Origin: Magnetococcales bacterium WMHbin3
GTDB taxonomy: Bacteria > Pseudomonadota > Magnetococcia > Magnetococcales > Magnetaquicoccaceae
DNA length: 64,000 nt
Assembly (NCBI GenBank): GCA_002753185.1
Contig: PDZX01000001.1
Coordinates: 62,001-126,000, forward strand
Reading direction: 5' to 3'
The notes under the pieces are model-generated. The model ran no database searches. It was not told the DNA's origin and saw only the letters and a program-made list of their open reading frames with translations. The translations under genes and the position numbers were made by a program. Positions 34,241 to 53,910 of this stretch are shown here, one piece after another (position 1 is the stretch's first letter; every line of letters starts with the position of its first letter).

Positions 34241-34243
34241 GGC

Positions 34244-36433
34244 TCACTTGAAGCGGAAGTGCTTGGCCCCGTCCCAGTTTTCGGGCGGCGGGGATTGCAT
34301 GAAGTGCATGCAGCGCTGCCGATAGAGGTTGCCCAACCCGGAGTTGGGGGAGTGGGCGAGCAGAACCCGGCAGGCCTCCAGCGCCTTGCTCCATTGCCTG
34401 GCTTGATAGAACACGAAGATCGGCGCCCACAGCGACAGTTCCGCGAGCTGGTGATCGGTGACCAGCAGGTGTCGCGGACCTTCCCGCAGGCCGAGCAGTT
34501 CGTACAGGGGCACCGGCTGGGTGGCGCCCTTGGGCACGGCCAGGTCCACCTGACGGGTGACGAACTCCGGTTCGAGGCGCTTGGCCACCGCGTCGGTGAT
34601 CAGGATCTGGGTGCCGTAGACCTTGTTGAGTCCCTCCACGCGGGAGGCGAGGTTGACGGCGGCGCCCATGGCGGTGTAATCCATGCGATCCGGCGAGCCG
34701 ATGTTGCCGATGATCACCTCGCCGGTGTGCAGGCCGAAACGGGTGGGCAAGACGGGTTGCCCCCGTTCCTGCCAGACGCGGTTCAGGGCGTTGCTGGCAT
34801 GGGCGCAGGCCAGGGTGGCGATGCACGCCTGGACGGAATGCTGGTCGGTGCGCTGGGGGGCGTTCCAGAAGGCCATGATGGCGTCGCCGATGTATTTGTC
34901 GATGGTGCCCCCGTGTTCGAGGATGGATTTGGTCATCTCCCGCAGATACTCGGAGACCAGGTCGGTGAGTTGTTCCGGGGGGAGGCTTTCGGCCAGGTGG
35001 GTGAAGTTGCCGACATCCGTAAAAAGCAATGTAATTTCTCGACGCTCACTGTGCCGGCCGATGTTTTCGCCGGTGGCGATGAGTTGCCGCACCAGGGCCT
35101 TGGGGACGTATTGGCCGAAAATGTTGAGGGCGTTTTTCATGGCGCCGATGGATTGGGTCAGGGCGCGGATTTCCGTGATATGGGAGTGGACCGGCACCGG
35201 GCCTTCGAGTTGGAACTGTTGGATGCGGCTGGTCTCCTGGGCCAGTTGGCGCAGCTTGCTGGTGAAACGGCGGGAGACCAGCCAGGTGATGGGCAGGGTC
35301 AGCGCCAGGGCGCACAGGGAGAAAAACAGGCCGCGGATGCCGGTATCGGCGATGGGGCCGAGGAACTCGCTGACGGGGACGGTGACCGCGATCATGGTTT
35401 CCCTGGCGTAGCGTTCCGGGAGCGGGGTGATCAGGCCGATGTGTTGCTGGCCGTGGACCGGGAAGATGGTGCCGTTGACCCACGATCCGTTGAGGTGGCG
35501 CGTCACCAGTTCCTCGATGACGGGATTGCGCAGGTCGGTGACCTTGGCGATCTTGAGGGTGGTGGCGCCGGTGAGGTCGTTGACGAAGACCTGCATGGTT
35601 CTGCTTTCGTCCGGATGGACGATCACCTCGCCCTTGCGGTTGAAGAAGAGGATCTGGCTGGAGGGGCTGAACTGCTGGTGTTGCAGGAACTCGGAGAGGT
35701 GGCTCAAGGTGATGTCGATGCCGAAGACGCCGCCGCTCTCCTTGCCCTGGAGGCGATGGGAGAAGGTGATGCCCGGTTTGCGGATGCTGTGGTAGATGTA
35801 GGGATCCGAGACCTTGACGTCGCGGTCGTCCGGGCTGGCAATGAACCAGGGACGTTGGCGGGGATCGAAGGTGGTGGTGTCCGGGGGGTGAGAGCCTGCC
35901 TTGTTGCCTGCCACGTCCAGGAAGCTCCACTGCTTGAACGACGGTTGCCCGGATCGGGCAATGACGGTCAGCACGCCGAAGTGGGCCTGTTCGGGGGGTT
36001 GCAGGGATTGCTTGAAGCGTGGCTGCGAGTCGAGGTTGACCAGTTGCAGGAAGTCGCCGTTGTCGTAGCCGACATACAGGGAGAAGATTTGCGGATACTG
36101 GAGGATGGTTTGGAAGAGGTCGTCCAGGCCGGGGTAGGGGGTGGTTTCGGAGGGGTGTTGCCGCAGGCGTGACTCGGCGCTGAGGATGGTGGCCAGGCTA
36201 TGGATGGGGTCGTGGGTGCGCTGGTAGCGTTCGACGATTTTGTGGTTGACCTCCTGGAGCAGGAGTCGGGCGGAGGCGGTGGCGGTTGCCGCGTTTGCGG
36301 CGTAGTTGTACCAGGTGACGATGCCGACCAGGGTGCAGATGAGCGTCAGAAAGATGGCCGTCAAGCTGGCGTGGAACGAGATGGAGCGGTCTTTCCGGAA
36401 CATTTCAGGGGTGGTCCGGTTGGGGTGCGGCAT
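34244..36433 (-). CDS. Membrane class III adenylate/guanylate cyclase with Cache sensor domain
   Basis: 729 residues. The start at 36433 overlaps the Nudix gene by 29 nt; an ATG at 36403 would give 719 residues. A membrane segment at about 22-44 is followed by a periplasmic double-Cache-like domain (about 50-350: FDPRQRPWFIAS, FGIDITLSHLSEFL), a second membrane segment (about 365-385), a HAMP-like helix and the cyclase domain. The cyclase keeps metal-binding LLFTDVGNFTHLAE and YIGDAIMAFW plus the transition-state region DYTAMGAAVNLASRVE. A C-terminal TPR-like tail follows. It should make cAMP (or cGMP) in response to an extracytoplasmic ligand. Three cyclic-nucleotide-binding proteins lie within the window. 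Confidence 0.88.
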   Translation of the reverse strand: MPHPNRTTPEMFRKDRSISFHASLTAIFLTLICTLVGIVTWYNYAANAATATASARLLLQEVNHKIVERYQRTHDPIHSLATILSAESRLRQHPSETTPYPGLDDLFQTILQYPQIFSLYVGYDNGDFLQLVNLDSQPRFKQSLQPPEQAHFGVLTVIARSGQPSFKQWSFLDVAGNKAGSHPPDTTTFDPRQRPWFIASPDDRDVKVSDPYIYHSIRKPGITFSHRLQGKESGGVFGIDITLSHLSEFLQHQQFSPSSQILFFNRKGEVIVHPDESRTMQVFVNDLTGATTLKIAKVTDLRNPVIEELVTRHLNGSWVNGTIFPVHGQQHIGLITPLPERYARETMIAVTVPVSEFLGPIADTGIRGLFFSLCALALTLPITWLVSRRFTSKLRQLAQETSRIQQFQLEGPVPVHSHITEIRALTQSIGAMKNALNIFGQYVPKALVRQLIATGENIGRHSERREITLLFTDVGNFTHLAESLPPEQLTDLVSEYLREMTKSILEHGGTIDKYIGDAIMAFWNAPQRTDQHSVQACIATLACAHASNALNRVWQERGQPVLPTRFGLHTGEVIIGNIGSPDRMDYTAMGAAVNLASRVEGLNKVYGTQILITDAVAKRLEPEFVTRQVDLAVPKGATQPVPLYELLGLREGPRHLLVTDHQLAELSLWAPIFVFYQARQWSKALEACRVLLAHSPNSGLGNLYRQRCMHFMQSPPPENWDGAKHFRFK

Positions 36434-37019
36434 GGGCGTGACGCAGGGCCTCCCGGTTGAGGAGCAGCCATTGCATGGCCAGCACGGCGATGGCCGAGTC
36501 GAGGGTATGGTCGTGGAGCCATTGGCTTGCGGTGGCGAAGGGGACGAGGAGGGGTTGGATGTCCTCGTCTTCGGTCGTCAGGCCGCCGCCGCCCTCCGGG
36601 GGGCATGAGGAGTCGAACAGGCCGCAGAAGAGGTGGATGCGTTCGCTGCTGCCGCTGGGGCTTAGGAAAAAGGTGCGGACGTGGCGCAGGTCGGTGAGGT
36701 GCCAACCGGTCTCTTCCAGGACCTCGCGGCGCGCGACCGCTGCGGGGTTGGTTTCCTTGCCGCAGGAGCCGGCGACGATTTCGACGATCCAGCCCGACTC
36801 CTGGCGCATCAGGGGGCCGAGGCGGAACTGGCGGATCAGGCCCACCTGATCGTGTTGCGGGTCATAGAGGATCACGGCGGCGGCGTCGCCCCGTTCCAGG
36901 ATTTCCAGTTCCACCTCGCGGCTCATGTGGCCGTCGAATCGTTGGTAGCGCAGGCGGGTTTTCAGCAGGCGAAAGAATCCCCGATAGAGTTCATCTGTGC
37001 GCAGCAGTTCGATATTCAT
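36405..37019 (-). CDS. Nudix hydrolase (ADP-ribose pyrophosphatase-like)
   Basis: 204 residues from ATG 37019; the longer frame begins with TTG. The Nudix box reads GSCGKETNPAAVARREVLEETGW, which keeps REVLEETG but has Thr at the first glutamate position of the GX5E part. The preceding WIVEIVAG is typical of ADP-ribose pyrophosphatases (NudF), as is the GGLTTEDEDI region after the box. Likely reaction: hydrolysis of ADP-ribose or a related nucleotide sugar. It lies 18 nt downstream of a small gene and overlaps the cyclase gene, so the three probably form one operon. Confidence 0.8.
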   Translation of the reverse strand: MNIELLRTDELYRGFFRLLKTRLRYQRFDGHMSREVELEILERGDAAAVILYDPQHDQVGLIRQFRLGPLMRQESGWIVEIVAGSCGKETNPAAVARREVLEETGWHLTDLRHVRTFFLSPSGSSERIHLFCGLFDSSCPPEGGGGLTTEDEDIQPLLVPFATASQWLHDHTLDSAIAVLAMQWLLLNREALRHAHAAPQPDHP

Positions 37020-37037
37020 GGATCCAGTCAACCGGTT

Positions 37038-37241
37038 CTAAAAGAAGGTGCGTCGTTCCAGCCAGATCTTGTCTTGGAAGTAGTCCAGCACGCCGTTCAC
37101 GCGGCGTTTCTGGGTCTCGTCCATGGGATCGGATTGGGGCAGGCCATCCAGTTCCAGGCGGGCGAGGAATTCATCATACACGATCGGAACGGTTTGCAGC
37201 ATGTTTATTTTGTTTTGGAGCGTATCGGTTCCGGCGCCCAT
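37038..37241 (-). CDS. Small protein of unknown function
   Basis: 67 residues beginning MGAGTDTLQNKINMLQ. The ATG at 37241 has AGGGAG about 9 nt upstream. It is acidic to neutral, helical and soluble, with no known family. A sigma-54-like sequence lies on the minus strand at 37302-37287, 46 nt upstream of the start. First gene of the probable operon with the Nudix hydrolase and the cyclase. Confidence 0.55.
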   Translation of the reverse strand: MGAGTDTLQNKINMLQTVPIVYDEFLARLELDGLPQSDPMDETQKRRVNGVLDYFQDKIWLERRTFF

Positions 37242-37286
37242 GTTGGTGACTCCCTGGTTGGAGTGAAAAACGGATGTTAGTGAAAA

Positions 37287-37302
37287 TTCAATTCTTGTGC
37301 CA
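37287..37302 (-). promoter_or_regulatory. Weak sigma-54-like promoter for the 37241 gene
   Basis: Minus-strand TGGCACAAGAATTGAA matches the -24 element fully but has GA where the -12 GC should be. Distance to the start codon (46 nt) is right. Reported because it mirrors the plus-strand site. Confidence 0.3.
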
Positions 37303-37610
37303 ACAGGAAAAACGAATAAAATAAAGATGTTATTTTGTCCACGGTCGTGGCCGGGGTGGTTCGGGCGGCAGATCTTGCCTGCTGCAACCGGCATGGAATA
37401 TGCGTGATTCATCCTGTCGGACGATTGCGCCGATAAGGATATTGACGGGTTGAGGCATGGTCTTGCATGATTCCGGGGCTGGACAGCGTATCGAGACGGG
37501 TTTCCCTTCTCGGCGCGCCAGCCCATCGGGATCCTGGGGATGGGGGGCGGCGAGGTATCGTTTCTTGACACATTCCCTGGAATTGCTTGAAAAAATTTTA
37601 TATAATGGCA

Positions 37611-37626
37611 TGGCACGGGGAATGCT
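37611..37626 (+). promoter_or_regulatory. Sigma-54-like promoter for the 37681 gene
   Basis: TGGCACGGGGAATGCT fits TGGCACG-N4-TTGCW with one mismatch in the -12 element; the invariant GG (37612-37613) and GC (37624-37625) are 10 nt apart. The predicted transcript start near 37637 would leave a leader of about 45 nt. Confidence 0.5.
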
Positions 37627-37680
37627 TTGTCCCTTTTCGCTCAAGTCTAGGATTCACCAGCGATGCGAGGAGAGGGAAAG

Positions 37681-37857
37681 ATGGCCAATTTGCGGATTGT
37701 TGTCAGTCAGCGGGATTACAAGATCCTGGATGAGGATGCCCATCGTTTGATCTGTGAGGGGATATCCAGTTACCGGCGGGCGCTGATGCTGTACGAGCGT
37801 CTGATCCGTTTGCAGGAAGGCGAGCTTGCCTGGCCTTCGGCGGGTTTTGCACCATGA
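37681..37857 (+). CDS. Small protein of unknown function
   Basis: 58 residues beginning MANLRIVVSQRDYK. The start is fixed by GAGGAGAGGGAAAG just upstream; an in-frame ATG at 37663 would place that site inside the gene. It looks like a short beta-helix-helix protein, with a central helix-forming YRRALMLYERLIRLQEGE. No family is recognised. It lies behind a sigma-54-like promoter and 13 nt before the cyclic-nucleotide-binding gene, so the two are likely one operon. Confidence 0.55.
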   Translation: MANLRIVVSQRDYKILDEDAHRLICEGISSYRRALMLYERLIRLQEGELAWPSAGFAP

Positions 37858-37870
37858 TCCGGAGTAACTG

Positions 37871-38545
37871 ATGCGTGAGATCGAGGGATTGGATGTCGGC
37901 GACTTGAGGTCGATTTTCGACAGGATCGATTTTTTCGCCTTTTTTTCGCCAGAGGAGTTGGATGCGCTGATCGGTTCGCATCTGCATGTCGTGGCCTATG
38001 ATGTGGGGGAGTATCTGATCAAGGAGGGGAGTGCCGACGAGCGGAGTCTGTTTTTTCTGTTGTCGGGTGGGGCGAGCGTGGTCAAGCGTGGGGCGCGCTT
38101 TCCGTTGGTTTCCTTGCATCCGGGGGATTTTTTCGGGGAGGTCTCCTTTCTCACGGAGCGGGTGCGCACCACGAACGTGATCGTGCATCCCCCGGATCGG
38201 CGGGACGAGGGGGGGGGCGATGAGGTGCCGTGGCGTGGGGTGGATCAGGCGGCCACGGTGGTGCTGCGTTTTGCGCCGGAGTTGATGGCCGATATGGAGA
38301 TCGGGCTGAGGATCAAGTTCAAGGATTTGATCATAGGGCATTTATCCGATCGGGTGGATGCCACGCACGAGCAGGTGGTGCGTTTGACCGGGCAGGATCC
38401 CATGTTGACCGTGGATCCGGAGTTGGAGCGGGAGTTGCGGGAGTGGAATCGTTCCCTGGAGGAGCGGGAGCGGACCAAGGATCGTCTGATTGCGCAGTTG
38501 GCGGAATTTCTGGATGAGTTGAACCGTTGTTTGGTGATGGAGTAA
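37871..38545 (+). CDS. Cyclic-nucleotide-binding domain protein with insertion and C-terminal helix
   Basis: 224 residues; GGAG lies 6 nt before the ATG. The cyclic-nucleotide-binding domain spans about 15-160. The phosphate-binding cassette is HPGDFFGEVSFLTERVRTTNVI, with the key Glu and Arg present. An insert of about 25 charged residues (HPPDRRDEGGGDEVPW) follows the cassette and is absent from the two paralogues at 48276 and 58176. A C-terminal coiled-coil-like helix (about 185-220) replaces any DNA-binding domain, so it is not a CRP-type regulator. It may sense cAMP made by the cyclase encoded 1.5 kb away. Confidence 0.75.
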   Translation: MREIEGLDVGDLRSIFDRIDFFAFFSPEELDALIGSHLHVVAYDVGEYLIKEGSADERSLFFLLSGGASVVKRGARFPLVSLHPGDFFGEVSFLTERVRTTNVIVHPPDRRDEGGGDEVPWRGVDQAATVVLRFAPELMADMEIGLRIKFKDLIIGHLSDRVDATHEQVVRLTGQDPMLTVDPELERELREWNRSLEERERTKDRLIAQLAEFLDELNRCLVME

Positions 38546-38572
38546 TTTATAATTTTTTATGGAGATTTTTGT

Positions 38573-38615
38573 CGTTTCTGACTTACGTTAATTGAATTAT
38601 CGTAAATCAGAAACG
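38573..38615. repeat. 15-bp inverted repeat between convergent genes (cyclic-nucleotide protein and rdrB)
   Basis: CGTTTCTGACTTACG (38573-38587) pairs with CGTAAATCAGAAACG (38601-38615), one mismatch, 13-nt loop. A T-run precedes and an A-run follows it on the plus strand, the opposite of a normal intrinsic terminator on either strand. It may still act as a transcript-end stem for both genes. Confidence 0.65.
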
Positions 38616-38624
38616 CAAAAAAAT

Positions 38625-41045
38625 TCAGGGATTTTCCAAGAAGCGATACGTTTGCGCATTGACCGCCAATCTCTCGATCTGCTCCATGGCCTCGTTGGCC
38701 GAGAGATGGAATTCACGGGTCAAGGTCTCGTAGACATGGGCGTATTCGTTGCGCAGGTTGGTGGCGAAGATGCCGGGGTCGTCGGTGGCCAGACACACCG
38801 CCGGGAGATGATCCCGCTCCAGGCCCTCCTGAATCCCCAGCCAGCGCCAGAGATGGTGCTCCTTGTGGGAATGGTAGAAACTGATGCGGACGTTGCTGGT
38901 GGGCATGGACTCGATGACGATCTCCTTCTCGTGCAGGATCTTGAGCAGGTTGGTCTGCATGCGTTGCAGGATCTCCTTGTTGAAACGCCGGTCATGCAAA
39001 TCGACGGTTTTCCATTGGTCGCCACGCGAGACGACATGAGGAAGGTGGTATTGCAAAAAGCGAAAGAATGCCGATGGGTTCTCTTTTTTCGCCTGCTCGA
39101 TCCTTTCCCATTCCTCCTGGGCGCGGAACTCCAGACCATCCATGTTCTCGCGTTCGGGAAAACAGGCGATCAAGGGATCCAGGCGACGCAGCTTCCACGC
39201 CTCCCACAGGGTGGAGGGGAGCACGGGGTCACCAAAAACCTCCAGGGCCAGGCTCTCGATCTCATCGCGAATGGAGGCAGGGGCCTCCTGGCCGCCGTTG
39301 TTTTCCTGTCCCAACAGGAAACGGGCGAACAGCAGATTGTCCAGCACGTCCTGCTTGGAGATGGGGATGGAGGGTTGCATGGTCGTCAACCACAATTCCG
39401 GGTCGATCCCCACCGCCGTGGCATGGCCGATGCGGTTGCCACGTCCCAGATCCAGGAACATCACGGCCTCGTAAATGGCCCGCATGCCGGAGAGGAGATG
39501 GACGAAATCCTCGCCGACGTGGTAGGTGAAATGCACAAAACCCGCGCGCCGGAAGCGCCGGTAGAGGGGCGCGAACACCTCCGGACCGGCGTAGAGTTCG
39601 TTGTTGGCCGCGTCGATGCCGGTCCAGTGATGTTTCAACAATCGGGAATCGCGCCGAACCGCGAGCAATGACCGCGCCGTCCGCTCCAGACTGGTGCGCA
39701 GCCCTTGATGCCGCACGCCGAGCTTCATGCATTGGTCCTGCCCGGCTTTGTCCGGCTTTTTGATGAAATGGGCGATCAGACGCAATTGCAATTTTTTGGG
39801 ATTGGGGAGTTGCTGGTCATTGAAGAAATCGATTGGACCTTTTCCCTGGAATTGCGCATACCCTGAAAAAATTTTTTTCAACAGTTCGACATTCTCCCGA
39901 TAGCTCTCCCTGGGGGCGAAACGGCCTTCCAGATAGGAGATGTCCCGACCGCGATTGCCGATCAACTGAAAAAATCTGGCCTTGTACTCTTTTTCCGAAC
40001 TGGAGCGCAGCTCGTTGTTAGCGAAATTTTCGAATTGATCGAAGCCGAACTGTTCCTGCTGCTGCACCATGAAGCGGTGGAAAAATCCCCACAGCAGCAG
40101 GTAGAGGTGGTAGGCACGGACCATCACCTCGTCGTGGCACATGGAGAAAAAATGGCACATGTGGACATGGAACATCCCTTCCAGGATGGTGGAGGGGTGG
40201 CACGCAAAGGCAGTGTCGATCCGGGAGAGGGGATGATACCAGGGGAGGACCAGATCCGGATCCATGAAAGGCATGGCCTTCAGGTTGCGCATCCGATCGA
40301 ATCCGGCCCTTGTCAGCCGCTTTCTGCGATAGAGATGGAGGATCATGGCCTCCCGCAGGCAGGCTGCCAGACGCAGGCGGTCGAAGATCTCCTTGGGTTC
40401 GATCCCCGGCTCCACCTGATCGAACTGCTGGCGGACGATGGGGTTGTCCAGGGCGGTGCGGAACTCCCGATAGAAGGCATTGCAATCCTCCAGGGCATTC
40501 AGCCAGACCCGGTCGGGTTCCGTGGTGCCGTTGAGGTGCATGTGGAGTTCCATCAGCCCGTGTGTGCGGATATGCCGTTCCAGTTGGGGAATGAAAGGCG
40601 AGGGGAGGGTGGTCCGGCAGAGGTTCGGGTTCAGATACGCGTCGCCGTAGCGGAGCATCTCCTCCCAGTCGAATCCCGGCGCACCGAATCGGTCGAAGAG
40701 GACGAAGGCCACCAGGGGCAGGGCGGGGATGCGTGTCAGGATGCCCTGCCAGGTGTCCAATACGTGTGGTTGGACATGGACAACCGGCCCGCGGGTCTCC
40801 AGGTACTCCTCCGTGACCCGGCGCAAGGTTTGCCACAGGACGGGGGCGAGATCGGGTGTTATTGGCAGGGTCTGGTGGCCGAGATTGGTGAAAAAATGGT
40901 CCGGCCGCCTGAAATCGATGTTGCGTTCGATCAGATGGAGACGGGCACGGATCTGGGCGACGGTGGGCTGCCTGCCGCGCAGATAGTCGCGCAGGCTTTC
41001 CGTGTCCGCAAGGAGTTGGCGCAGGATCAGGGATGAGGAGACCAC
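38625..41045 (-). CDS. rdrB: RdrB-like adenosine deaminase of a RADAR anti-phage system
   Basis: 806 residues, GTG start at 41045 with AAGGGATAAGG just before it, 3 nt after rdrA. The adenosine-deaminase active site is complete but spread over a much longer chain than housekeeping Add: metal ligands H168/H170 in MELHMHLNG, H509 and catalytic E512 in YHVGEDF, H541 in RIGHATAVG, the SMPTSN motif (713-718), and D755/D756 in ATDDPG. About 160 residues precede the first motif and 330 lie between HxH and HVGED. This size and pairing with a large P-loop ATPase match RdrB, which in RADAR deaminates adenosine (adenine nucleotides and RNA have been proposed as targets) on phage infection. A solitary AMP-deaminase-like enzyme is the main alternative. 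Confidence 0.85.
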   Translation of the reverse strand: MVSSSLILRQLLADTESLRDYLRGRQPTVAQIRARLHLIERNIDFRRPDHFFTNLGHQTLPITPDLAPVLWQTLRRVTEEYLETRGPVVHVQPHVLDTWQGILTRIPALPLVAFVLFDRFGAPGFDWEEMLRYGDAYLNPNLCRTTLPSPFIPQLERHIRTHGLMELHMHLNGTTEPDRVWLNALEDCNAFYREFRTALDNPIVRQQFDQVEPGIEPKEIFDRLRLAACLREAMILHLYRRKRLTRAGFDRMRNLKAMPFMDPDLVLPWYHPLSRIDTAFACHPSTILEGMFHVHMCHFFSMCHDEVMVRAYHLYLLLWGFFHRFMVQQQEQFGFDQFENFANNELRSSSEKEYKARFFQLIGNRGRDISYLEGRFAPRESYRENVELLKKIFSGYAQFQGKGPIDFFNDQQLPNPKKLQLRLIAHFIKKPDKAGQDQCMKLGVRHQGLRTSLERTARSLLAVRRDSRLLKHHWTGIDAANNELYAGPEVFAPLYRRFRRAGFVHFTYHVGEDFVHLLSGMRAIYEAVMFLDLGRGNRIGHATAVGIDPELWLTTMQPSIPISKQDVLDNLLFARFLLGQENNGGQEAPASIRDEIESLALEVFGDPVLPSTLWEAWKLRRLDPLIACFPERENMDGLEFRAQEEWERIEQAKKENPSAFFRFLQYHLPHVVSRGDQWKTVDLHDRRFNKEILQRMQTNLLKILHEKEIVIESMPTSNVRISFYHSHKEHHLWRWLGIQEGLERDHLPAVCLATDDPGIFATNLRNEYAHVYETLTREFHLSANEAMEQIERLAVNAQTYRFLENP

Positions 41046-41048
41046 GCC

Positions 41049-44000
41049 TTATCCCTTGGGGTAGATGAGATTGACGATGTACTCCTTGGCCACCTGCAAA
41101 ACCGGGTTGCCCTTTTGCGCCAGGCGATAGTGCCGCATCTTCAGCAGGAATTCCGCCGCGATCTCCTCGGCGATCCTTTCCACGTCCTCGTACTGGAGGC
41201 GTTCCGACTTCAGCCGCCGGAACAATTTGTTCTCCGTCATGAGGTCCAGAAACTCCCGATCCCGGGCCGACAGGGCGAGGCTGGCGTTTCTTTTGCCGGT
41301 ACGTGGCGCTTCGGGTCCCATGCCTGCGGGCGGCGGTTGTTCTTCCGGCGCGCTTTCCGCTTCCGCCGGTTCTTCGCCAGGGAGTGGCATGGTGCGTAGA
41401 TCCATGAAGCGTCTGTCTACAGCGATCAGCACGGAATTGAGCGGATCGAAAAGATTGTCGAAACAGTCTTGACCGTGATAGGTCGGTTTCAGGGCGTTCG
41501 GGTGCAACGAATTGGCGCGCAGAATGAATTGAAACAAGGATCCCGGCTGGGGGTCGTTTTCGACATACAGCCCCCAAACCGGACAGGAGGCGACCCAGTG
41601 GAAAAAGGGGGTCTTGTCCTGCATGATGTCAAAGGAATCGCTTGCATTGGGGGTCTGCGCGACCAAACGGATATTCTTGTAGAATATCTTGTCGGACAAG
41701 GTGGCGTTGCGAAAGACCTCTGCCCGTTCCACGCTCCAGCTCTCTTCGATGAGGATGGCGTTCAGCAAGGCGATGATCTGGCGGTGCAGCAGATGGCCAA
41801 GGTAGATGTGATGGATTTTAAAAAGGTTGTCCTGACTGTCCAGGGTCTGCGTGAAGCGGGTCCATGCCCTGGCCAGCACGACCATCGAGATGCCTTGTTT
41901 CGGGGCGGCTTTGATCCAGTTTTCGATCGCATTGAAAAAGTCCGCATCGCCGGATTCCTCATCGGACGCTTCCGGTTGCTCGAAATCCTCAGGCTCCAAC
42001 TCTTCCGTTGTTGTTGGCGAAGTGTCATCGCTGTCCAACATCTTGAACCAGGGAGTGGTGTAAATGATGGAAGAGAGCCATTTGACAGTGGTCAGCAGGG
42101 TGAATCGTTCGTTGTTGTCGCCCTTGGCGTAATAGATCAATTCGCCAAGAGCGGCAAGCATGGGAAAGATGGAATAGATGGGTATTTTGTTGCCATTCTT
42201 ATTCCGGGTCAGGGTCAAGGGGAGATAGACGGCATAACGATGCCACGAGGAAATGCCGTTGTAAAGATCGCCAAGCCGATTGAAATAGCCCGCCTTCATG
42301 TTTGTCAAAGGATGCTTGACGTCAATGAGGCCATGGAATCTTTTGGCGTAAGAATCCGGGGCTTGCGTGCGGATCCATTCGCTCAACCATGAGGTATCAC
42401 GATTTTGCACAATGAGCGAGTTAGGTATTTGATAAAGGATGGCAATTTGGCGGAAATCCCCATCTTGCCAACTCAAGCGCACTCTTTTATCGCCTTGATT
42501 GAGTGCCCGCAAGGTGACGATGCCTTTGTTCAGGAACTGACGAAAACGACTGCTTTTGTCCGCGCTGCTCAACAGGGCGTGCATGCAAGCCGTTGCCTTG
42601 CGGGCAATGTCGATTGAATAATTATTGTATTTTATGCCAAGAAAATCAATATAATTGTAGAGTGTGATCGGTGAAGCGGAATATTGAGCGATTTGCCAGA
42701 CCGTCTGCGTCAGGGCGATCTTGATGAAATATTTGAAATACAAATCCGGATTCTTGCGGGCGACATGGGTCACCAAAGCGCCCATGGCGATCATTTGGCC
42801 GTCGATCTGACGATCGTTGAATTCGGGACGCAACCGGAAACCGCGTTCCAAGAGATTGTTGTTGACCAGACTGAGCAGCAGGTTGTCCAGGATGTTGGCT
42901 GGATTGGGATGCTTCAGTTCGTTGGGCCGAAAGCCGCCCTGGTCCAGTGGCACGAAGAACATGTCCACCAGATGGCCGTAAAACGCATCGGAGTAACCGG
43001 AGGACTCGCCCCGGTTCTGCAAGGCGGCACGCAGGAAGTTTTGATTGAAACGAATGGATTCTCGGAAAAAATAGCGTTGCAAGGCCAGTTTGTCGTTGGA
43101 ATTGTTGATGCTGAATGCCTGCTGGAAAATGTCGCTGACAAATTGTTCGATACTCCCCTTTCCGTCGTAACACAGATCGTATTTATATAATGTTTCGTCG
43201 AGAGTGATCAATTCGATGCGTCGTTCTGTCTTTAAAACTTTAAGGAGGTACTCCTTTTCAAGATTATTTAACACTTCTAAATATTTTTTATCATTATTAT
43301 CAAATCTGATCAAACCTGAATTGAAATTCAGATATTGATTCTGCCGCACCATGATCGAATAGAGATTGATGTCCCCCGAAAGCACGGCAATGATCTGCGG
43401 GGTGGTCAGGTATTTACGAATCACCTCAAGCAAAGGCCAGCCGGACTTGCAATGGGTGTCGATGTCGTCGAACATCAACAGAAAGGCTTCCTTTTTCAGC
43501 AGCTTCAGACTCAGATTGACAAAACAGTGAAAGCGGAACGCCAATTCGATGCCGGCTTGCACATGGTTCGATTCGGTCTCCATCACCCGATGGGGATCGG
43601 TCCAGTTTTGCGCCTTGAAATCGTTCAGCCCACTGCCATCGAGAATACCCAACCCCTTGGCCAGTTTGTTGAGGGCATTCAACCAGTCTTGATAGGCCCC
43701 ATCCTTGGAACACCAGGAATCGGAGCCTCTGGAGTCATGATCGGTAAGGCATTTATCACGCAATTCCGGCGCTTTCCGATGATCCAATACACGCTGGCGG
43801 ATCAACGTGATGATGTGAAGGAAGGCGTGGCCCTCGCTCGCTTGCAAGGTCGGATCGAGGATTTTTAAAAGATCGATCCTGGTGTTGAGCTTGTTGTTAT
43901 TTTTTATTATTTCAAGCATGCTTAATAAAAATGATGTCTTGCCGCTTCCCCGTGGCCCAGAAATCAGAATTGTATCATGATGGTGAATTGGGTCTAACAG

Positions 44001-44168
44001 GTTGTTTTTGTCAAGTTTTTGTAAAAAAGGATCGATCTTGCCGAGGCTCTGCTCCACATGACGAAAAAAGGAGTCCTTGGCATCTCGTTGGATGATCTCC
44101 TGCTCGTCGAACGCCTGGGCATCCCCGGAACGGGTCAGATTAATGAGAATTACAGGTTTTTCGCTCAT
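41049..44168 (-). CDS. rdrA: RdrA-like P-loop ATPase of a RADAR anti-phage system
   Basis: 1039 residues. Walker A is SGPRGSGKTSFLLSML (70-85) and Walker B LLMFDDIDTHC (230-240), followed by a sensor-like VLSGDINLY (262-270). This is a STAND/KAP-related AAA+ layout with about 770 further helical residues of no known domain. The size, the position directly before the giant deaminase and the 3-nt spacing all match RdrA, which assembles into rings and guides or activates RdrB. Base composition is visibly more AT-rich than neighbouring genes, especially at 43200-44000, a sign of horizontal transfer. It starts at 44168 with a weak AGGA; no other ATG is better. Confidence 0.83.
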   Translation of the reverse strand: MSEKPVILINLTRSGDAQAFDEQEIIQRDAKDSFFRHVEQSLGKIDPFLQKLDKNNLLDPIHHHDTILISGPRGSGKTSFLLSMLEIIKNNNKLNTRIDLLKILDPTLQASEGHAFLHIITLIRQRVLDHRKAPELRDKCLTDHDSRGSDSWCSKDGAYQDWLNALNKLAKGLGILDGSGLNDFKAQNWTDPHRVMETESNHVQAGIELAFRFHCFVNLSLKLLKKEAFLLMFDDIDTHCKSGWPLLEVIRKYLTTPQIIAVLSGDINLYSIMVRQNQYLNFNSGLIRFDNNDKKYLEVLNNLEKEYLLKVLKTERRIELITLDETLYKYDLCYDGKGSIEQFVSDIFQQAFSINNSNDKLALQRYFFRESIRFNQNFLRAALQNRGESSGYSDAFYGHLVDMFFVPLDQGGFRPNELKHPNPANILDNLLLSLVNNNLLERGFRLRPEFNDRQIDGQMIAMGALVTHVARKNPDLYFKYFIKIALTQTVWQIAQYSASPITLYNYIDFLGIKYNNYSIDIARKATACMHALLSSADKSSRFRQFLNKGIVTLRALNQGDKRVRLSWQDGDFRQIAILYQIPNSLIVQNRDTSWLSEWIRTQAPDSYAKRFHGLIDVKHPLTNMKAGYFNRLGDLYNGISSWHRYAVYLPLTLTRNKNGNKIPIYSIFPMLAALGELIYYAKGDNNERFTLLTTVKWLSSIIYTTPWFKMLDSDDTSPTTTEELEPEDFEQPEASDEESGDADFFNAIENWIKAAPKQGISMVVLARAWTRFTQTLDSQDNLFKIHHIYLGHLLHRQIIALLNAILIEESWSVERAEVFRNATLSDKIFYKNIRLVAQTPNASDSFDIMQDKTPFFHWVASCPVWGLYVENDPQPGSLFQFILRANSLHPNALKPTYHGQDCFDNLFDPLNSVLIAVDRRFMDLRTMPLPGEEPAEAESAPEEQPPPAGMGPEAPRTGKRNASLALSARDREFLDLMTENKLFRRLKSERLQYEDVERIAEEIAAEFLLKMRHYRLAQKGNPVLQVAKEYIVNLIYPKG

Positions 44169-44221
44169 GGCACACGGATCCTGTCAATCTAGGGATAATG
44201 ATACAATTATAAAAACACTTC

Positions 44222-44252
44222 ATAATATGCCGTTGATTGGTTCGTTAGTCAA
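44222..44252 (-). promoter_or_regulatory. Candidate sigma-70 promoter of the rdrAB operon
   Basis: On the minus strand, TTGACT (44252-44247) and TATTAT (44227-44222) are separated by 19 nt. The start point would lie near 44215, about 47 nt before the rdrA ATG. The spacer is long, so strength is probably modest. Confidence 0.4.
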
Positions 44253-44541
44253 GGATGATTTGCAAAAAAGAGGTCCGTGAATCGGCATTCGGAGTTATCG
44301 CGGTTTTGATGATGATTTTTTATTAAGTTTAAATTATTTTTATAATAATAACCTTTACCCCTCCCAGCCACCGCCGCTTCGGTCAGCCCGAATCATGCCT
44401 TCCCAAATATCAGTTACGTCAATTGCGACGGCGCATGAGCTGCTGTGAGAAAAATGGTTGCGTGACGTTCCGTTACAACTGCCTCGGCACCAACCCGCCA
44501 TCCCATGACCGGTAAAAAAATGACCTATAAAAAAAATTTGC

Positions 44542-44571
44542 TTGCTAAAAGCACACTCAATTGGCTATGAT
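44542..44571 (+). promoter_or_regulatory. Promoter of the cold-shock gene
   Basis: TTGCTA (44542-44547) and TATGAT (44566-44571) are 18 nt apart. The predicted leader of nearly 90 nt, with a U-rich stretch, is typical of cspA-like mRNAs whose 5' region controls translation in the cold. Confidence 0.5.
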
Positions 44572-44665
44572 CTGCTGCAAGAGGGGATAAGCGGGAAGAC
44601 AGTGATTGTTTTTTCTTTTATCCTATAGTCATAAAAAAGTCCAAGTCAGTCAGGAGTCGAAAACA

Positions 44666-44878
44666 ATGTCGCAATCGGTACGTGGTACGGTCAAATGGTT
44701 CAACAATTCCAAAGGGTTCGGCTTTCTGGCCCCGGAAGACGGCAGCGAGGATGTCTTCGTGCATTTCTCCGCCATCAAGGCCGACGGATTCAAATCCCTG
44801 GAGGAGGGACAAAAGGTGAAATTCGACGTGGTGCGCGGTCAGAAAGGACTGCAAGCCGCCAACGTCGAACCGGCCTGA
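44666..44878 (+). CDS. Cold-shock protein (CspA family)
   Basis: 70 residues, one OB-fold. RNP1 is KGFGFL and RNP2 is VFVHF, with the aromatic residues for nucleic-acid binding in place. The ATG at 44666 has AGGAG about 10 nt upstream. It binds single-stranded RNA and acts as an RNA chaperone in the cytoplasm. A strong hairpin terminator follows (44911-44938). It is transcribed divergently from the RADAR operon. Confidence 0.95.
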
Positions 44879-44910
44879 ACACCCCCCACTGGAACCCGCA
44901 ACCAGCCACG

Positions 44911-44942
44911 CCGCCCGAAGCCCCCCGGCTTCGGGCGGTCTC
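44911..44942 (+). terminator. Intrinsic terminator after the cold-shock gene
   Basis: CCGCCCGAAGCC (44911-44922) pairs perfectly with GGCTTCGGGCGG (44927-44938) over a CCCC loop, followed by TCTCGTTT. The U-run is imperfect, but the 12-bp GC-rich stem is strong. Confidence 0.75.
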
Positions 44943-44963
44943 GTTTGGCACGAACCACACGCA

Positions 44964-46073
44964 ATGCTCGCCGAATTCTCTGAAAAATACTTCTTCCTCA
45001 AGGCGTTTCACGGCTTGACCCTCACCCTGGTCCTCTCCCGTGAGAGCGATCCGCGACCCGAAACCGTGCATGCCCTGGCCGGGGTGCTGCAAGACCTCTC
45101 CGCCCATCGGGTGAAGGCGCTGTTTCTCGTCCAGGAGAGCCGCCAAACCCACGATTTCCTGCACGCCCTGGACGAACGCCTGCATCACGCCTGTCACCAA
45201 CTGGCCACCTTCCGGCCCGACGAAATCCCGGTGGCCCTCTGGCGCCGCTCCGCCATGTGGACCTCCCTGGGCTTCGCCACCCTCGAAACCCCCGTATTCC
45301 TGGAACAGGTCGCCCGCTTAGGCTGCGCCCTGCGCCTGCCCCGCGTGCTGCTCATCGACCAGACCGGCGGAGCGGGGTGGCGCGATGAAAACGGCCTCCG
45401 CCCCGGCTTCGTGAACGCCCACCGCCTGCGCAAGCTCCCGGAAACCCCGGAAAACCGCCTGTTCCTGCCCGCCATCCGCGCCTTGCTGGCCGGCGGCGTC
45501 GGGGCCGTGACCCTCTGCCGGCTCCAGGATTTGGAAACCGAACTCTTCTCCTACGAAGGCGCGGGCATCTTCTTCGCCCGCCGCCACTATTGCCAGGTGC
45601 GCCGCCTGACCCTCGACGACTATTCCCAGGCCGCCGCCATGATCCGCCGTGGCGAAAAGGAAGGCTTTCTTCTGCCCCGCTCCGACGAGGATGTCACCGC
45701 CCTCCTGACGCAAGGCTACGGGGCTTTCATCTCCGAACACCACCTCGCCGGGGTCTGCGGCCTGGTCACCGCCCCCTACCGGGAGGAAAATGGCGGCGAA
45801 ATCACCGCGCTCTACGCCCTGACCCGCTTCCATGGCGAAGGGGTGGGGGCGCGCATGGTCACCCGGATCGTCCAGGAGGCCAGGCGTGGCGGCCTGCGCG
45901 CCCTGTTCGCCTGCGTGGGAGACCGGCGAGCGGTGGAATTTTTTGGCCATCACGGCTTCCGGACGGTTGCCCATTCCGCCCTCCCCGATGCAAAATGGCG
46001 CCATTACGATCCGGCGCGCAAGTCCCGCATCACCTGTCTGCTCAAGGACCTGCCGCCACTTGCCGGGGGATAG
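44964..46073 (+). CDS. ArgA-like GNAT acetyltransferase with reduced amino-acid-kinase-like N-terminal half
   Basis: 369 residues. The C-terminal GNAT domain (about 215-350) begins VRRLTLDDYSQAAAMIRRGEKEGFLLPRS, a close match to N-acetylglutamate synthase, and continues with EITALYALTRFHGEGVGARMV (acetyl-CoA loop) and EFFGHHGF. The N-terminal 200 residues sit where ArgA has an amino-acid-kinase domain (starting FSEKYFFLKAFHG) but lack its glycine-rich phosphate loop and look shortened. Expected reaction: acetylation of glutamate as the first step of arginine synthesis; the altered N-terminal half could mean different feedback control or substrate. It lies 6 nt before thiO. Confidence 0.68.
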   Translation: MLAEFSEKYFFLKAFHGLTLTLVLSRESDPRPETVHALAGVLQDLSAHRVKALFLVQESRQTHDFLHALDERLHHACHQLATFRPDEIPVALWRRSAMWTSLGFATLETPVFLEQVARLGCALRLPRVLLIDQTGGAGWRDENGLRPGFVNAHRLRKLPETPENRLFLPAIRALLAGGVGAVTLCRLQDLETELFSYEGAGIFFARRHYCQVRRLTLDDYSQAAAMIRRGEKEGFLLPRSDEDVTALLTQGYGAFISEHHLAGVCGLVTAPYREENGGEITALYALTRFHGEGVGARMVTRIVQEARRGGLRALFACVGDRRAVEFFGHHGFRTVAHSALPDAKWRHYDPARKSRITCLLKDLPPLAGG

Positions 46074-46079
46074 AGCGCT

Positions 46080-47171
46080 GTGGAGGAGATCGTCGTCATC
46101 GGCGCCGGAGTGATGGGGTGCGCCTGCGCCCATCGCCTGGCCGAAGCGGGCCACAAGGTCACGCTGTTGGAAAAATCCCTGCCCGGCGCGGAATCGTCGG
46201 CGGCGGCAGCCGGCATTCTGGGCGCCCAGTCCGAGGTCTCCGGCCCCGGTTCGTTCCTCGAACTCTGCCTGGCCAGTCGGCAGCGGTTTCGCGACTATGC
46301 CCGCGAGTTGACCGAACTGACCGGCGTGGCCACCGCCTACGAGGATTCCGGCGTCCTGGAAGTGGCCCTGGATCCCGCCGAGGGCCGCATCCTGGCGGCC
46401 CGCGCCGGCTGGATGGAGGAGCGCGGCCTGCGCGTCGCAGTGCTGGACCGGGAGGAGGCGCGCCGTCTGGAACCGGCCCTGACCGAATCGATGGTCGGCG
46501 CTGCCTGGTTTCCCGACGACCACCAGGTGGACCCGGTGGCCCTGGCCGCCGCCCTGGCCGCCGCCGCGTCCCGTGTCGGCGCGCGCTTTCGTTCCGGGGA
46601 GCGGGTGCGCGAGGTGATGACCCGCGACGGACACGTCACCGGCGTGCGCGTCGGCGACGGGGTGTTGCCAGCGGATCGGGTGGTGGTGGCGGGCGGGGCC
46701 TGGAGCGGCGAAATCCGTGGCCTGCCCCCGTTGCGCGCCTCGGTCAAGCCGGTGGCGGGGCAGATCGTGCGCATGGAGTGCCGTCCGCCCTTCTTCCGGC
46801 ACGTGGTGTACGGCTGCAAGGGATACGTGGTCCCACGCCGGGATGGGCGGGTGGTGATGGGGTCCACCCTGGAGGACCGGGGCTTCGACAAGGCCGTCAC
46901 CGTGGCCGGCCTGCACCGCATCACCGGCATGGGCATGGAGATGGTCCCGGCATTGCGCGATGCCCGCTTCGGCGGGGCCTGGTCCGGCCTGCGGCCCGGC
47001 ACCAGCGACGGCCTGCCCCTGCTGGGCGAGTCGGCCACGGTGCGCGGACTCTATTTTGCCGCAGGACATTATCGCAACGGCATCCTCCTGACCCCCATCA
47101 CCGCCGAGGTGATCCGGGACCTGATCCAGGGGACGTCACCCCCGGTCGATATTACCCCCTTCGCCCCATGA
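46080..47171 (+). CDS. thiO: Glycine oxidase ThiO
   Basis: 363 residues with a GTG start 6 nt after the preceding gene. The FAD-binding DAO fold starts VIGAGVMGCACAHRLAEAGH and has ESSAAAAGILGAQSE; the C-terminal motif RPGTSDGLPLLG and GHYRNGILLTP are typical of ThiO, with the His-Tyr-Arg-Asn-Gly stretch. ThiO oxidises glycine to the imine for the thiazole part of thiamine. No other thi gene lies here, so its clustering with mnmA is the main context. The stop overlaps the mnmA start (ATGA). Confidence 0.88.
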   Translation: MEEIVVIGAGVMGCACAHRLAEAGHKVTLLEKSLPGAESSAAAAGILGAQSEVSGPGSFLELCLASRQRFRDYARELTELTGVATAYEDSGVLEVALDPAEGRILAARAGWMEERGLRVAVLDREEARRLEPALTESMVGAAWFPDDHQVDPVALAAALAAAASRVGARFRSGERVREVMTRDGHVTGVRVGDGVLPADRVVVAGGAWSGEIRGLPPLRASVKPVAGQIVRMECRPPFFRHVVYGCKGYVVPRRDGRVVMGSTLEDRGFDKAVTVAGLHRITGMGMEMVPALRDARFGGAWSGLRPGTSDGLPLLGESATVRGLYFAAGHYRNGILLTPITAEVIRDLIQGTSPPVDITPFAP

Positions 47172-48253
47172 GCGGTCATGGGCAACGGGCCGCTGTGGCC
47201 ATGTCCGGCGGCGTGGACTCCGCCACCGTGGCGGCGCTCCTGGTGGAGCAGGGCCACGAGGTCATCGGCCTGACCATGCGCCTGTGGGATCGGGGGGATG
47301 CGGCGGGTCGCGCTCCGGGCCGCGCCTGTTGCGCCACCGAGGATGTCCATGACGCCAGACGGGTGGCGCAAACCCTGGGCATCCCCTTCTATGTCGTCGA
47401 TTTGACGGCCGAATTCCGGGAGGCGGTGGTGGAGGATTTCCTCGCTGCCCACGCCGCCGGACGCACGCCGAACCCTTGCGCACGCTGCAACGAGGTGCTG
47501 AAATTCCGCCATCTCCTCGACCGCGCCCGGCAGTTGGGGGCCTCGTTCCTGGCCACCGGCCACTACGCCCGCATCGAGGAGGTGGAGGGCGAGCCGTGGC
47601 TGATGCGTGGCCTGGATCCGGGCAAGGATCAATCCTATTTCCTCTTCGCCACGCGCCGCGAGGATCTGCCCGCGATCCGTTTTCCTCTGGGGGGGATGCG
47701 CAAGGAGGAAACCCGCGTCCGCGCCGGGGCCATGGGGCTGCACCTGGCGCGCAAGCGCGAGAGCCAGGACCTCTGTTTCCTCCCGGACGGCGACCCTCAT
47801 GATTTATTCGTTCACTCCGGGCGAACCGTGCTGGCGCAACCCGGCCCCATCTGCGATGATACGGGCCGTCTGCTGGGGGAACATCGGGGCCTGGGATATT
47901 ATACCATCGGCCAACGCCATGGCCTGGGCATCGGCGGCGCCCCCCATCCGCTCCATGTGATCGCCATCGAGCCGGGGGAAAACCGCCTGGTGGTGGGGCC
48001 GGCCTCTGCCCTGATGCGGGACGGACTGGAGCTTGCGGCGCTCAACTGGCTGCCCCGGCACCCCTTGACCGAGCCGGTCGCCGTCTTGGCGCAAATCCGT
48101 TACGCCTCGCCCCCCCAGCCGGCCCTCCTCACCCCGCTGGGCGGCGACCGGGCGCGCATCGATTTTCGTTCCCCTCAGAGGGCCATCGCCTCCGGGCAGG
48201 CCTGCGTCCTGTATGCCCAAGACCGGGTCCTGGGTGGGGGATGGATCACCTGA
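47168..48253 (+). CDS. mnmA: tRNA-specific 2-thiouridylase MnmA
   Basis: 361 residues, starting at ATG 47168 in an ATGA overlap with thiO. The ATP-pyrophosphatase loop is AMSGGVDSAT (SGGVDS at 13-18). The two catalytic cysteines are C102 in NPCARCN and C201 in SQDLCFLPDG. The PP-loop, central and C-terminal beta-barrel domains are full length. It thiolates U34 of Lys, Glu and Gln tRNAs. A much longer open frame upstream in this phase is only a shadow of thiO. Confidence 0.95.
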   Translation: MSGHGQRAAVAMSGGVDSATVAALLVEQGHEVIGLTMRLWDRGDAAGRAPGRACCATEDVHDARRVAQTLGIPFYVVDLTAEFREAVVEDFLAAHAAGRTPNPCARCNEVLKFRHLLDRARQLGASFLATGHYARIEEVEGEPWLMRGLDPGKDQSYFLFATRREDLPAIRFPLGGMRKEETRVRAGAMGLHLARKRESQDLCFLPDGDPHDLFVHSGRTVLAQPGPICDDTGRLLGEHRGLGYYTIGQRHGLGIGGAPHPLHVIAIEPGENRLVVGPASALMRDGLELAALNWLPRHPLTEPVAVLAQIRYASPPQPALLTPLGGDRARIDFRSPQRAIASGQACVLYAQDRVLGGGWIT

Positions 48254-48275
48254 CGACCTTACCGGAGACCACATC

Positions 48276-48719
48276 ATGGAACTGAAACCCCTGTTGGACA
48301 AGATTCCCTTTTTCGCCCAGTTCACCGACGGGGAAAAGGAGCGCATCTTGCGCATGAACTGCTATTTCGCCAAATACAAGGCCGGCGATTTCATCATCCG
48401 CGAGGGTTCCCTGGACAACAACTCCATGTACATCATCCTCAAAGGCGGGGCGCACGTGACCCAGAACCCCTTTCCCGACACCCCCATCGCCACCCTGGAG
48501 GCCGGCACCGTGGTCGGGGAGATCTCGTTTCTCACCCTGCAGCCCAGAATCAGCAACGTCATCGCCCGCGAACCGACCGTCTGTTTCACCATCAACGGCG
48601 CCACCATGGAGGATCTCCCCTCCCCGTTGCAACACAAAATCAAGGACCGCCTGATCGAAATCCTGGTGAAACGCCTGGAAACCATGAACCAAACCCTGGT
48701 GGACCTCATGCGGCGTTGA
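48276..48719 (+). CDS. Cyclic-nucleotide-binding domain protein, stand-alone
   Basis: 147 residues; ATG 48276 has GGAG 9 nt upstream. A single cyclic-nucleotide-binding domain: the cassette is EAGTVVGEISFLTLQPRISNV, with Glu and Arg kept. It ends in a helix HKIKDRLIEILVKRLETMNQTL almost shared with the 58176 protein, so the two are close paralogues. There is no DNA-binding or catalytic domain. It probably works as a small ligand-dependent adaptor. It lies 22 nt after mnmA, with no obvious functional link. Confidence 0.78.
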   Translation: MELKPLLDKIPFFAQFTDGEKERILRMNCYFAKYKAGDFIIREGSLDNNSMYIILKGGAHVTQNPFPDTPIATLEAGTVVGEISFLTLQPRISNVIAREPTVCFTINGATMEDLPSPLQHKIKDRLIEILVKRLETMNQTLVDLMRR

Positions 48720-48811
48720 GCGCTCCTTAACCATGGCCGGAAAGAATATGCTCGCTCTGAAGGTGGGGGAAAACGGCTATTGCATTCACTTTTGAAGCTA
48801 CGGTCGGGTAA

Positions 48812-49042
48812 GCCCCCGGAATCCAAATTGAGCCTTTCCCGGTTTATGTCGGGCGGATTCTCACGGGACACGAGTGGTATCACGACGCGGAATTCACTAC
48901 CGCCTGGTGGGCGCATGGGGTGGGACTGGCAGTCGGCGCGGCCTGGCTGCGGCGCAAGGGCCATTGGCGGCTGCTGCACCTATTGGGCGACACCACGATT
49001 GCGGGAAAGCAAACAGCGCCCGATCAATCCACTCTGTCCTGA
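48812..49042 (+). pseudogene. Possible gene remnant in a 304-bp non-coding gap
   Basis: Between the cyclic-nucleotide gene and the toxin-antitoxin pair there is no good gene. One frame is open from the TAA at 48809-48811 to a TGA at 49040-49042 and reads as protein-like sequence (TGHEWYHDAEFTTAWW, then KGHWRLLHLLGD), but it lacks a start codon and ribosome site. It may be the tail of a decayed gene. Its end overlaps the antitoxin gene on the other strand. Confidence 0.25.
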
Positions 49043-49266
49043 TCGTGTATGGGTGGCACGTCGGGAACCTGGGAGAGGGCTTGATGGAACAAGGCCAGAT
49101 CCCCACGCATGGCCCGGTCACGCAGCAGCCTTTCGGTGTCCAGGGCCGACACCTTTTCCGCGATGGCGGTCACGAACAGCTGGTTCATGGAGGCGTTTTC
49201 ATCCCTGGCGAGACGCCGGGCCGCATCCAACAACGAATCGGGCAATCGCAAGGCATATTGGCTCAT
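49024..49266 (-). CDS. Antitoxin-like ribbon-helix-helix protein
   Basis: 80 residues. The ATG at 49266 has GGAG 8 nt upstream and overlaps the stop of the PIN gene (ATGA). The N-terminal MSQYALRLPDSLLDAARRLA followed by SMNQLFVTAIAEKV is the beta-helix-helix pattern of HicB-like/Arc-type antitoxins. The C-terminal tail (about 50-80) should wrap the toxin. Expected role: neutralise the PIN protein and repress their operon. The order, toxin first, is the reverse of the common one. Confidence 0.75.
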   Translation of the reverse strand: MSQYALRLPDSLLDAARRLARDENASMNQLFVTAIAEKVSALDTERLLRDRAMRGDLALFHQALSQVPDVPPIHDQDRVD

Positions 49267-53311: not shown

Positions 53312-53327
53312 GGTTTTGTTGGCCCCG

Positions 53328-53900: not shown

Positions 53901-53910
53901 GTCGATGTCC

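What the first reader, a model, noticed from the sequence alone, without database searches (positions are those of the whole stretch)
38625..44168. RADAR-type anti-phage operon: RdrA ATPase plus giant RdrB deaminase
Two genes 3 nt apart encode a 1039-residue P-loop ATPase and an 806-residue adenosine-deaminase-family protein. Seen directly: SGPRGSGKTS and LMFDDID in the first; HMHLNG, HVGED, GHATAVG and ATDDPG in the second, all catalytic positions kept. Established: this pair and size define RADAR, in which RdrA rings recruit RdrB to deaminate adenosine during infection. Inference: a functional two-gene core with no accessory membrane protein in the window. It sits in AT-rich DNA unlike its neighbours, so it was probably imported.
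Basis: partly seen in the sequence, partly recalled or inferred. Interest (0 to 1): 0.85.

Follow-up and report, generated by a model that had tools for sequence, protein, structure and literature searches.

The report
Divergent RADAR anti-phage operon in Magnetococcales
This is an intact but distant relative of a known bacterial antiviral system (RADAR), in which an ATPase partners a giant enzyme thought to wreck the cell's ATP pool during phage infection; its kind is known, but standard annotation misses it.

Summary
The finding holds. On the minus strand, rdrA (41049-44168, 1039 aa) and rdrB (38625-41045, GTG start, 806 aa) lie 3 nt apart, with all quoted motifs present. The pair matches E. 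coli RADAR, whose cryo-EM structures are solved. RdrB aligns nearly full length to 8fnv (E 1.7e-84), and its predicted structure (pLDDT 91) matches 8fnv/8hr7 (TM 0.80-0.84). A profile of 42 RdrA relatives matches E. coli RdrA end to end (E 2e-172). All published ATPase and zinc/catalytic residues are kept. In an RdrB tree the window falls in one supported clade with E. coli RdrB. RdrA sits beside RdrB in 80 of 90 related loci, nearly all found with RdrB alone.

The host is inferred to be Magnetococcales: the same pair sits at the same place in the same-genus genome nNGHbin2 (70/73% identical). Purifying selection (dN/dS 0.29-0.36) argues for function. Synonymous divergence of the pair (0.50-0.73) is about twice or more that of flanking genes (0.22-0.31), suggesting allele exchange at a fixed locus.

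Corrections: only rdrA is clearly AT-rich; the likely substrate is free ATP/dATP, not RNA. NCBI's equivalog models miss this clade. Verdict: real; new member of a known kind.

The parts
41049..44168 (-). rdrA: 1039-aa AAA+ ATPase of RADAR
   Evidence: PADLOC RdrA 1.9e-24; PDB 8fnt 3.5e-28; family profile vs E. coli RdrA 2e-172 end to end; predicted fold matches 8hr8/8fnt, TM by target 0.68-0.76
38625..41045 (-). rdrB: 806-aa adenosine-deaminase-fold protein of RADAR (GTG start, conserved as GTG in nNGHbin2)
   Evidence: PADLOC RdrB 8.7e-27; PDB 8fnv 1.7e-84 over residues 68-803; predicted fold pLDDT 90.7 matches 8fnv/8hr7, TM 0.80-0.84; start codon
43932..43961 (-). RdrA Walker A, SGPRGSGKTS (residues 70-79; E. 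coli G81-K82-T83 region)
   Evidence: R73, G74, G76 and K77 invariant, T78 nearly invariant in 42 homologues; alignment
43458..43478 (-). RdrA Walker B, LMFDDID (D234, D235 = E. coli D221, D222)
   Evidence: D234, D235, D237 invariant; alignment
43371..43373 (-). RdrA sensor 1 Asp266 (E. coli D253)
   Evidence: nearly invariant; alignment
43050..43052 (-). RdrA sensor 2 Arg373 (E. coli R377)
   Evidence: invariant; read from the profile alignment
40536..40544 (-). RdrB zinc motif H168-x-H170 (E. coli H152, H154)
   Evidence: invariant; alignment
39510..39521 (-). RdrB H509 (zinc) and E512 (catalytic), HVGE (E. coli H498, E501)
   Evidence: invariant; alignment
39423..39425 (-). RdrB H541 (E. 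coli H530)
   Evidence: invariant; alignment
38778..38783 (-). RdrB D755-D756 in ATDDPG
   Evidence: D755 invariant, D756 nearly invariant
44224..44252 (-). possible sigma-70-type promoter of the operon (TTGACT, 17 nt, CATATT); the TTGACT box is kept in nNGHbin2
   Evidence: weak: consensus scan, 10 promoter-like sites against 4.1 expected in the stretch; two-species alignment

Best explanation
A two-gene RADAR anti-phage system of the E. coli P0304799.3 type, intact and probably functional. RdrA forms a ring of AAA+ ATPases whose alpha-helical C-terminal lobe may sense infection, and whose crown docks on the shell-forming deaminase RdrB. On phage infection RdrB converts free ATP and dATP to ITP and dITP, so the nucleotide pool is spoiled and phage replication stops. 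Shown here: gene identity, fold of each protein, intact active sites, conserved pairing, purifying selection. Inferred from E. coli RADAR (PMC9994260): ring and shell assembly, ATP-to-ITP chemistry, the sensing role of the C-terminal lobe, and defence itself.
For: Sequence: PADLOC RdrA and RdrB; 8fnv 1.7e-84 and 8fnt 3.5e-28; family profiles against E. coli RdrA 2e-172 and RdrB 7e-220, both nearly full length. Structure: RdrB model pLDDT 90.7, best hits all E. coli RADAR RdrB with ordinary adenosine deaminases far below (7e-6 against 3e-39); RdrA model pLDDT 76.9, the 19 best hits all E. coli RdrA. Active sites intact. RdrA next to RdrB in 80 of 90 related loci, most of them found with RdrB only. 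Tree: window and E. coli RdrB in one clade, SH-aLRT 99. dN/dS 0.29 (rdrA) and 0.36 (rdrB) between two species. Relatives lie beside type I restriction genes and beside dcm/vsr genes.
Against: Nothing was measured: no phage assay, no enzyme assay. Scores against NCBI's RdrA and RdrB equivalog models are far below cut-off (139.8 of 600; 158 of 800), although a Pantoea protein 91% identical to the solved E. coli RdrB also misses that cut-off. The E595-E597 trimer-interface glutamates and crown residues K150/E151 of E. coli are not kept residue for residue (read by eye). The window is not a defence island in the ORFs scanned.
Confidence: 0.93

Rival explanations
2. A metabolic adenosine/AMP deaminase beside an unrelated P-loop ATPase.
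For: RdrB does match Pfam A_deaminase (1.4e-15) and TIGR01430 weakly.
Against: TIGR01430 score 62 is far below its cut-off 216.55. Length 806 aa and near full-length match to 8fnv, fold match to RdrB over the whole chain, and conserved pairing with RdrA all exclude it.
Confidence: 0.01
3. A decayed or silent RADAR remnant.
For: MAG-derived assembly, strong divergence, unusually diverged alleles between sister species.
Against: Both frames are intact in two species, all catalytic residues are kept, and dN/dS is 0.29-0.36.
Confidence: 0.04
4. A CRISPR-linked CARF-adenosine deaminase (Cad1-type) effector.
For: Weak PADLOC CARF_ADA hit, 3.1e-9, over residues 682-790, within the shared deaminase fold.
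Against: The hit covers only the deaminase C-terminal part; RdrB models score better; Foldseek to Cad1 is only TM 0.25.
Confidence: 0.01

Closest known systems
E. coli P0304799.3 RADAR (RdrA 8fnt/8hr7, RdrB 8fnv/8fnw; PMC9994260)
   Same: Gene order, gene sizes, AAA+ motifs (Walker A/B, sensors 1 and 2), zinc and catalytic residues, near full-length alignment of both proteins in family profiles, predicted folds.
   Different: RdrB 25% identical over the structural alignment, RdrA 14-17%. RdrA is 1039 aa against 947, partly a longer C-terminal tail after about residue 920 with a poorly predicted linker 924-960. The trimer glutamates E595-E597 and crown K150/E151 are not kept.
RADAR of Magnetococcales MAG nNGHbin2 (JADGAR010000012.1 = G001, L049/L065)
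   Same: Same genomic place, same 3-nt gap, GTG start of rdrB, 70% (RdrA) and 73% (RdrB) identity.
   Different: Synonymous divergence of the pair 0.50-0.73 against 0.22-0.31 for flanking genes.
Aliivibrio/Salmonella plasmid RADAR, the branch named by NCBI's RdrA and RdrB models (L145, L064)
   Same: Two-gene RADAR, same catalytic domain.
   Different: A separate deep branch; RdrB alignable only over residues 476-793, about 28% identity.
Cad1, CARF-adenosine deaminase of type III CRISPR
   Same: Adenosine-deaminase fold; ATP-to-ITP chemistry in antiviral immunity (title and abstract of PMC11645235).
   Different: CARF sensor fused to the deaminase; no RdrA; weak fold match, TM 0.25.

Membership tests
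RADAR (E. coli type) | rdrA and rdrB in tandem, no further gene needed | tested here: met
   3-nt gap, same strand; both flanking genes on the opposite strand
RADAR (E. coli type) | RdrA AAA+ motifs: Walker A, Walker B, sensor 1 (D253), sensor 2 (R377) | tested here: met
   G74/G76/K77/T78, D234/D235, D266, R373; alignments and conservation
RADAR (E. coli type) | RdrA alpha-helical C-terminal domain without other known homology | tested here: met
   Family profile aligned to E. coli RdrA residues 7-937; fold matches 8hr8 over about 990 columns, TM by target 0.75. Confidence in the lobe is moderate (pLDDT 50-65 around residues 530-630)
RADAR (E. coli type) | RdrB zinc tetrad and catalytic glutamate (H152, H154, H498, E501, H530) | tested here: met
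   H168, H170, H509, E512, H541 invariant in all homologues aligned
RADAR (E. coli type) | RdrB insertions 1-3 around the deaminase core | tested here: met
   Predicted fold matches RdrB chains over 842-854 columns, TM 0.80-0.84, against TM 0.24-0.29 (by query) for ordinary adenosine deaminases
RADAR (E. coli type) | Interface-3 glutamates E595-E597 needed for shell assembly in E. coli | tested here: inconclusive
   Aligned stretch in the window is GDP with a 2-residue gap; alignment is weak there
RADAR (E. coli type) | RdrA crown residues K150, E151, R162 needed for docking in E. coli | tested here: inconclusive
   Read by eye: K150 and E151 not kept, R162 is a lysine (K171); neighbouring L169, A170, G172 nearly invariant
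RADAR (E. coli type) | Heptameric RdrA, dodecameric RdrB, RdrA-RdrB complex | not testable with these tools
   Only single chains were predicted
RADAR (E. coli type) | ATP/dATP to ITP/dITP on infection and anti-phage protection | not testable with these tools
   Needs experiment
NCBIfam equivalog models NF041743 (RdrA) and NF041744 (RdrB) | Score above the curated cut-off (600 and 800 bits) | tested here: not met
   139.8 and 158 bits. All 44 RdrB relatives scanned, including a Pantoea protein 91% identical to solved E. coli RdrB, match but best E is only 1.8e-55, so none can reach 800 bits. This is a limit of the models' scope, not a defining trait of RADAR
Metabolic adenosine deaminase (TIGR01430) | Score above curated cut-off 216.55; about 320-350 aa single domain | tested here: not met
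   62.1 bits; 806 aa with large insertions

The most novel reading that the evidence does not exclude
The locus is a fixed chromosomal slot at which whole RADAR alleles are exchanged by homologous recombination between closely related Magnetococcales, keeping the flanks, and the fastest-changing stretch (RdrA residues about 505-620, in the C-terminal lobe) is the part that recognises phage.
Probability: 0.25. Interest if true: 0.5.

Novelty: new member of a known kind. Interest (0 to 1): 0.27.

Why it matters
It extends experimentally solved RADAR into Magnetococcales and shows that the E. coli-type RADAR clade, spread over at least ten phyla in the RdrB tree, is missed by the equivalog models NCBI uses to name RdrA and RdrB. 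Counts of RADAR from those models are therefore too low. The sister-species pair with highly diverged RADAR alleles inside conserved flanks gives a natural comparison for finding which part of RdrA recognises phage.

Tried and rejected
A single-protein scan of genome contigs found nothing; a six-sequence alignment found 308 relatives. No relatives in phage genomes. Plasmid relatives exist. Consistent accessory genes: in the 90 loci no neighbour family recurs in more than 5 loci. A small family of 206-224 aa hydrophobic proteins sits next to the pair in 5 relatives, with no PADLOC match; nothing like it adjoins the window's pair. Rejected: metabolic deaminase, Cad1-type effector, pseudogene (see rivals). 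Considered and not claimed: positive selection on RdrA. The most diverged block still has dN/dS near 0.3.

Full report
WHAT IS THERE. The genes on both sides lie on the opposite strand. Downstream of rdrB is a cNMP-binding-domain gene (37871-38545); upstream of rdrA is a cold-shock protein gene (44606-44878). So the pair stands alone as a two-gene unit. A TTGACT box upstream of rdrA is kept in the sister species, but the promoter call is weak.

IDENTITY. PADLOC names both proteins (RdrA 1.9e-24, RdrB 8.7e-27). Against the PDB the best hits are E. coli RADAR proteins: RdrB 8fnv 1.7e-84 over residues 68-803, and RdrA 8fnt 3.5e-28 over the N-terminal ATPase. Profiles from 42 RdrA and 44 RdrB relatives align with E. 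coli RdrA (2e-172, chain residues 7-937) and RdrB (7e-220, residues 2-797) nearly end to end. So the fast-changing C-terminal half of RdrA is homologous too.

STRUCTURE. The RdrB model (pLDDT 90.7) has RADAR RdrB chains as its eight best PDB hits (E 1e-36 to 3e-39, TM 0.80-0.84); the next hit, an ordinary adenosine deaminase, is at 7e-6. The RdrA model (pLDDT 76.9) has E. coli RdrA chains as its nineteen best hits, then S. suis RdrA. Oligomers were not predicted.

ACTIVE SITES. From the published E. coli residues (PMC9994260), Walker A, Walker B, sensor 1 and sensor 2 map to G74/G76/K77/T78, D234/D235, D266 and R373. The zinc tetrad and catalytic glutamate map to H168, H170, H509, H541 and E512. 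All are invariant or nearly so in the family. Residues that E. coli uses for RdrB shell assembly (E595-E597) and for docking (K150, E151) are not kept, and R162 is a lysine; alignment is weak there, so this is inconclusive.

RELATIVES. A scan with a six-sequence RdrB alignment found 308 relatives in one-per-species genomes, of which 80 were fetched. Across 90 loci RdrA lies next to RdrB in 80 (one locus, nNGHbin2, is counted twice, as L049 and L065). In eight of the other ten, less than 2 kb of upstream DNA is held. In one (L053) an 838-aa ORF lies directly upstream and may be a very divergent RdrA. Only L108 lacks RdrA despite enough DNA. Since most loci were fetched with RdrB alone, this pairing is an independent test. 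Some relatives sit behind type I restriction genes (L072, L118, L121, L133), and one beside dcm and vsr genes (L061), which supports a defence role by association. In a quick RdrB tree the window, nNGHbin2 and E. coli RdrB fall in one clade (SH-aLRT 99). The proteins that NCBI names RdrB (Aliivibrio), and two others from this order (G012, G030), form a different branch. The tree has long branches and no bootstrap, so only the broad split is used.

ANNOTATION GAP. NCBI's equivalog models need 600 and 800 bits; the window scores 139.8 and 158. Among 44 RdrB relatives all match NF041744 but the best E-value is 1.8e-55, too weak for 800 bits. That set includes the Pantoea plasmid protein (L063), 91% identical to the solved E. 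coli RdrB over the tree columns, and it is annotated 'hypothetical protein'.

HOST AND NEIGHBOURS. Genome G001 has the same pair in the same place. Its contig has the same length (84,098) as JADGAR010000012.1, Magnetococcales MAG nNGHbin2, so the window is inferred to be Magnetococcales. Window 31996-48731 is collinear with it at 85%. Only these 2 of 11 same-genus genomes have the pair. In the others checked, the left-flank and right-flank genes lie on different contigs, and in G010 other genes stand where RADAR would be. That fits a gain, or a rearrangement, in the ancestor of these two.

DIVERGENCE. Between the two species dS is 0.50 for rdrB and 0.73 for rdrA, against 0.22-0.31 for five flanking genes; dN/dS is 0.36 and 0.29. 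Identity drops from about 90% in the flanks to about 75% inside, with edges near 39.0 and 44.6 kb. Exchange of RADAR alleles by recombination at a fixed place explains this best, but differences in codon bias or mutation rate are not excluded. RdrA residues 505-604 are the most diverged block (52% identity, dN 0.37), but its dN/dS is about 0.3. In other relative pairs the slowest part is always the ATPase core and the fastest varies within the C-terminal half.

COMPOSITION. rdrA is 50.5% GC (lowest slice 43.8%), rdrB 58.9%, the cNMP gene 58.5%, GNAT 66.7% and thiO 71.5%. 'AT-rich' is fair for rdrA only.

HOW IT WORKS. By homology: RdrA ring plus RdrB shell; on infection ATP/dATP become ITP/dITP and phage replication is limited (PMC9994260). 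That paper did not reproduce strong RNA editing for E. coli RADAR. None of this was measured for the window's proteins.

VERDICT. A real, intact, divergent RADAR; new member of a known kind. Interest is modest: the value lies in the annotation gap, the new host group, and the sister-species allele comparison.

Noticed in passing
window 37469-37535: A structured element (hairpin, MFE z-score -4.57) present exactly once in 10 of 11 same-genus genomes and in none of 30 other genomes of the order; no Rfam family. Usually about 340-450 nt upstream of a cNMP-binding-domain gene, but about 3.8 kb away in G007. Candidate genus-specific RNA or DNA element.
   Followed up: partly
window 48731-58101: About 9.4 kb present here and absent from nNGHbin2 at the same place, flanked by two cNMP-binding-domain genes about 71% alike in DNA; it holds KdpA (55988-58009), a P-type ATPase like KdpB (53911-55971) and a response regulator (49918-50793), so a potassium-transport operon was gained or lost between repeats.
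   Followed up: partly
L050 (G012), L051 (G030), L052 (G026), L053 and L054 (G046): Other Magnetococcales carry RdrB-like genes of very different branches, 21-25% identical to the window's RdrB; RADAR seems to have been acquired several times in this order.
   Followed up: partly
L078, L079, L110, L113, L125, next to the RADAR pair: A family of 206-224 aa hydrophobic proteins adjoins the RADAR pair in these relatives and has no PADLOC match; possible accessory membrane protein.
   Followed up: partly
L050 4920-6653: Immediately downstream of the G012 RADAR pair lies a gene for what looks by eye like a multi-pass membrane histidine kinase, followed by a gene that looks like a response regulator; chance neighbour or regulator.
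   Followed up: no
L062 12444-14045: An adenylosuccinate synthetase gene is encoded close to the RADAR pair on Rhizobium plasmid pRLN3; it converts IMP towards AMP, which is curious beside an ATP deaminase.
   Followed up: no
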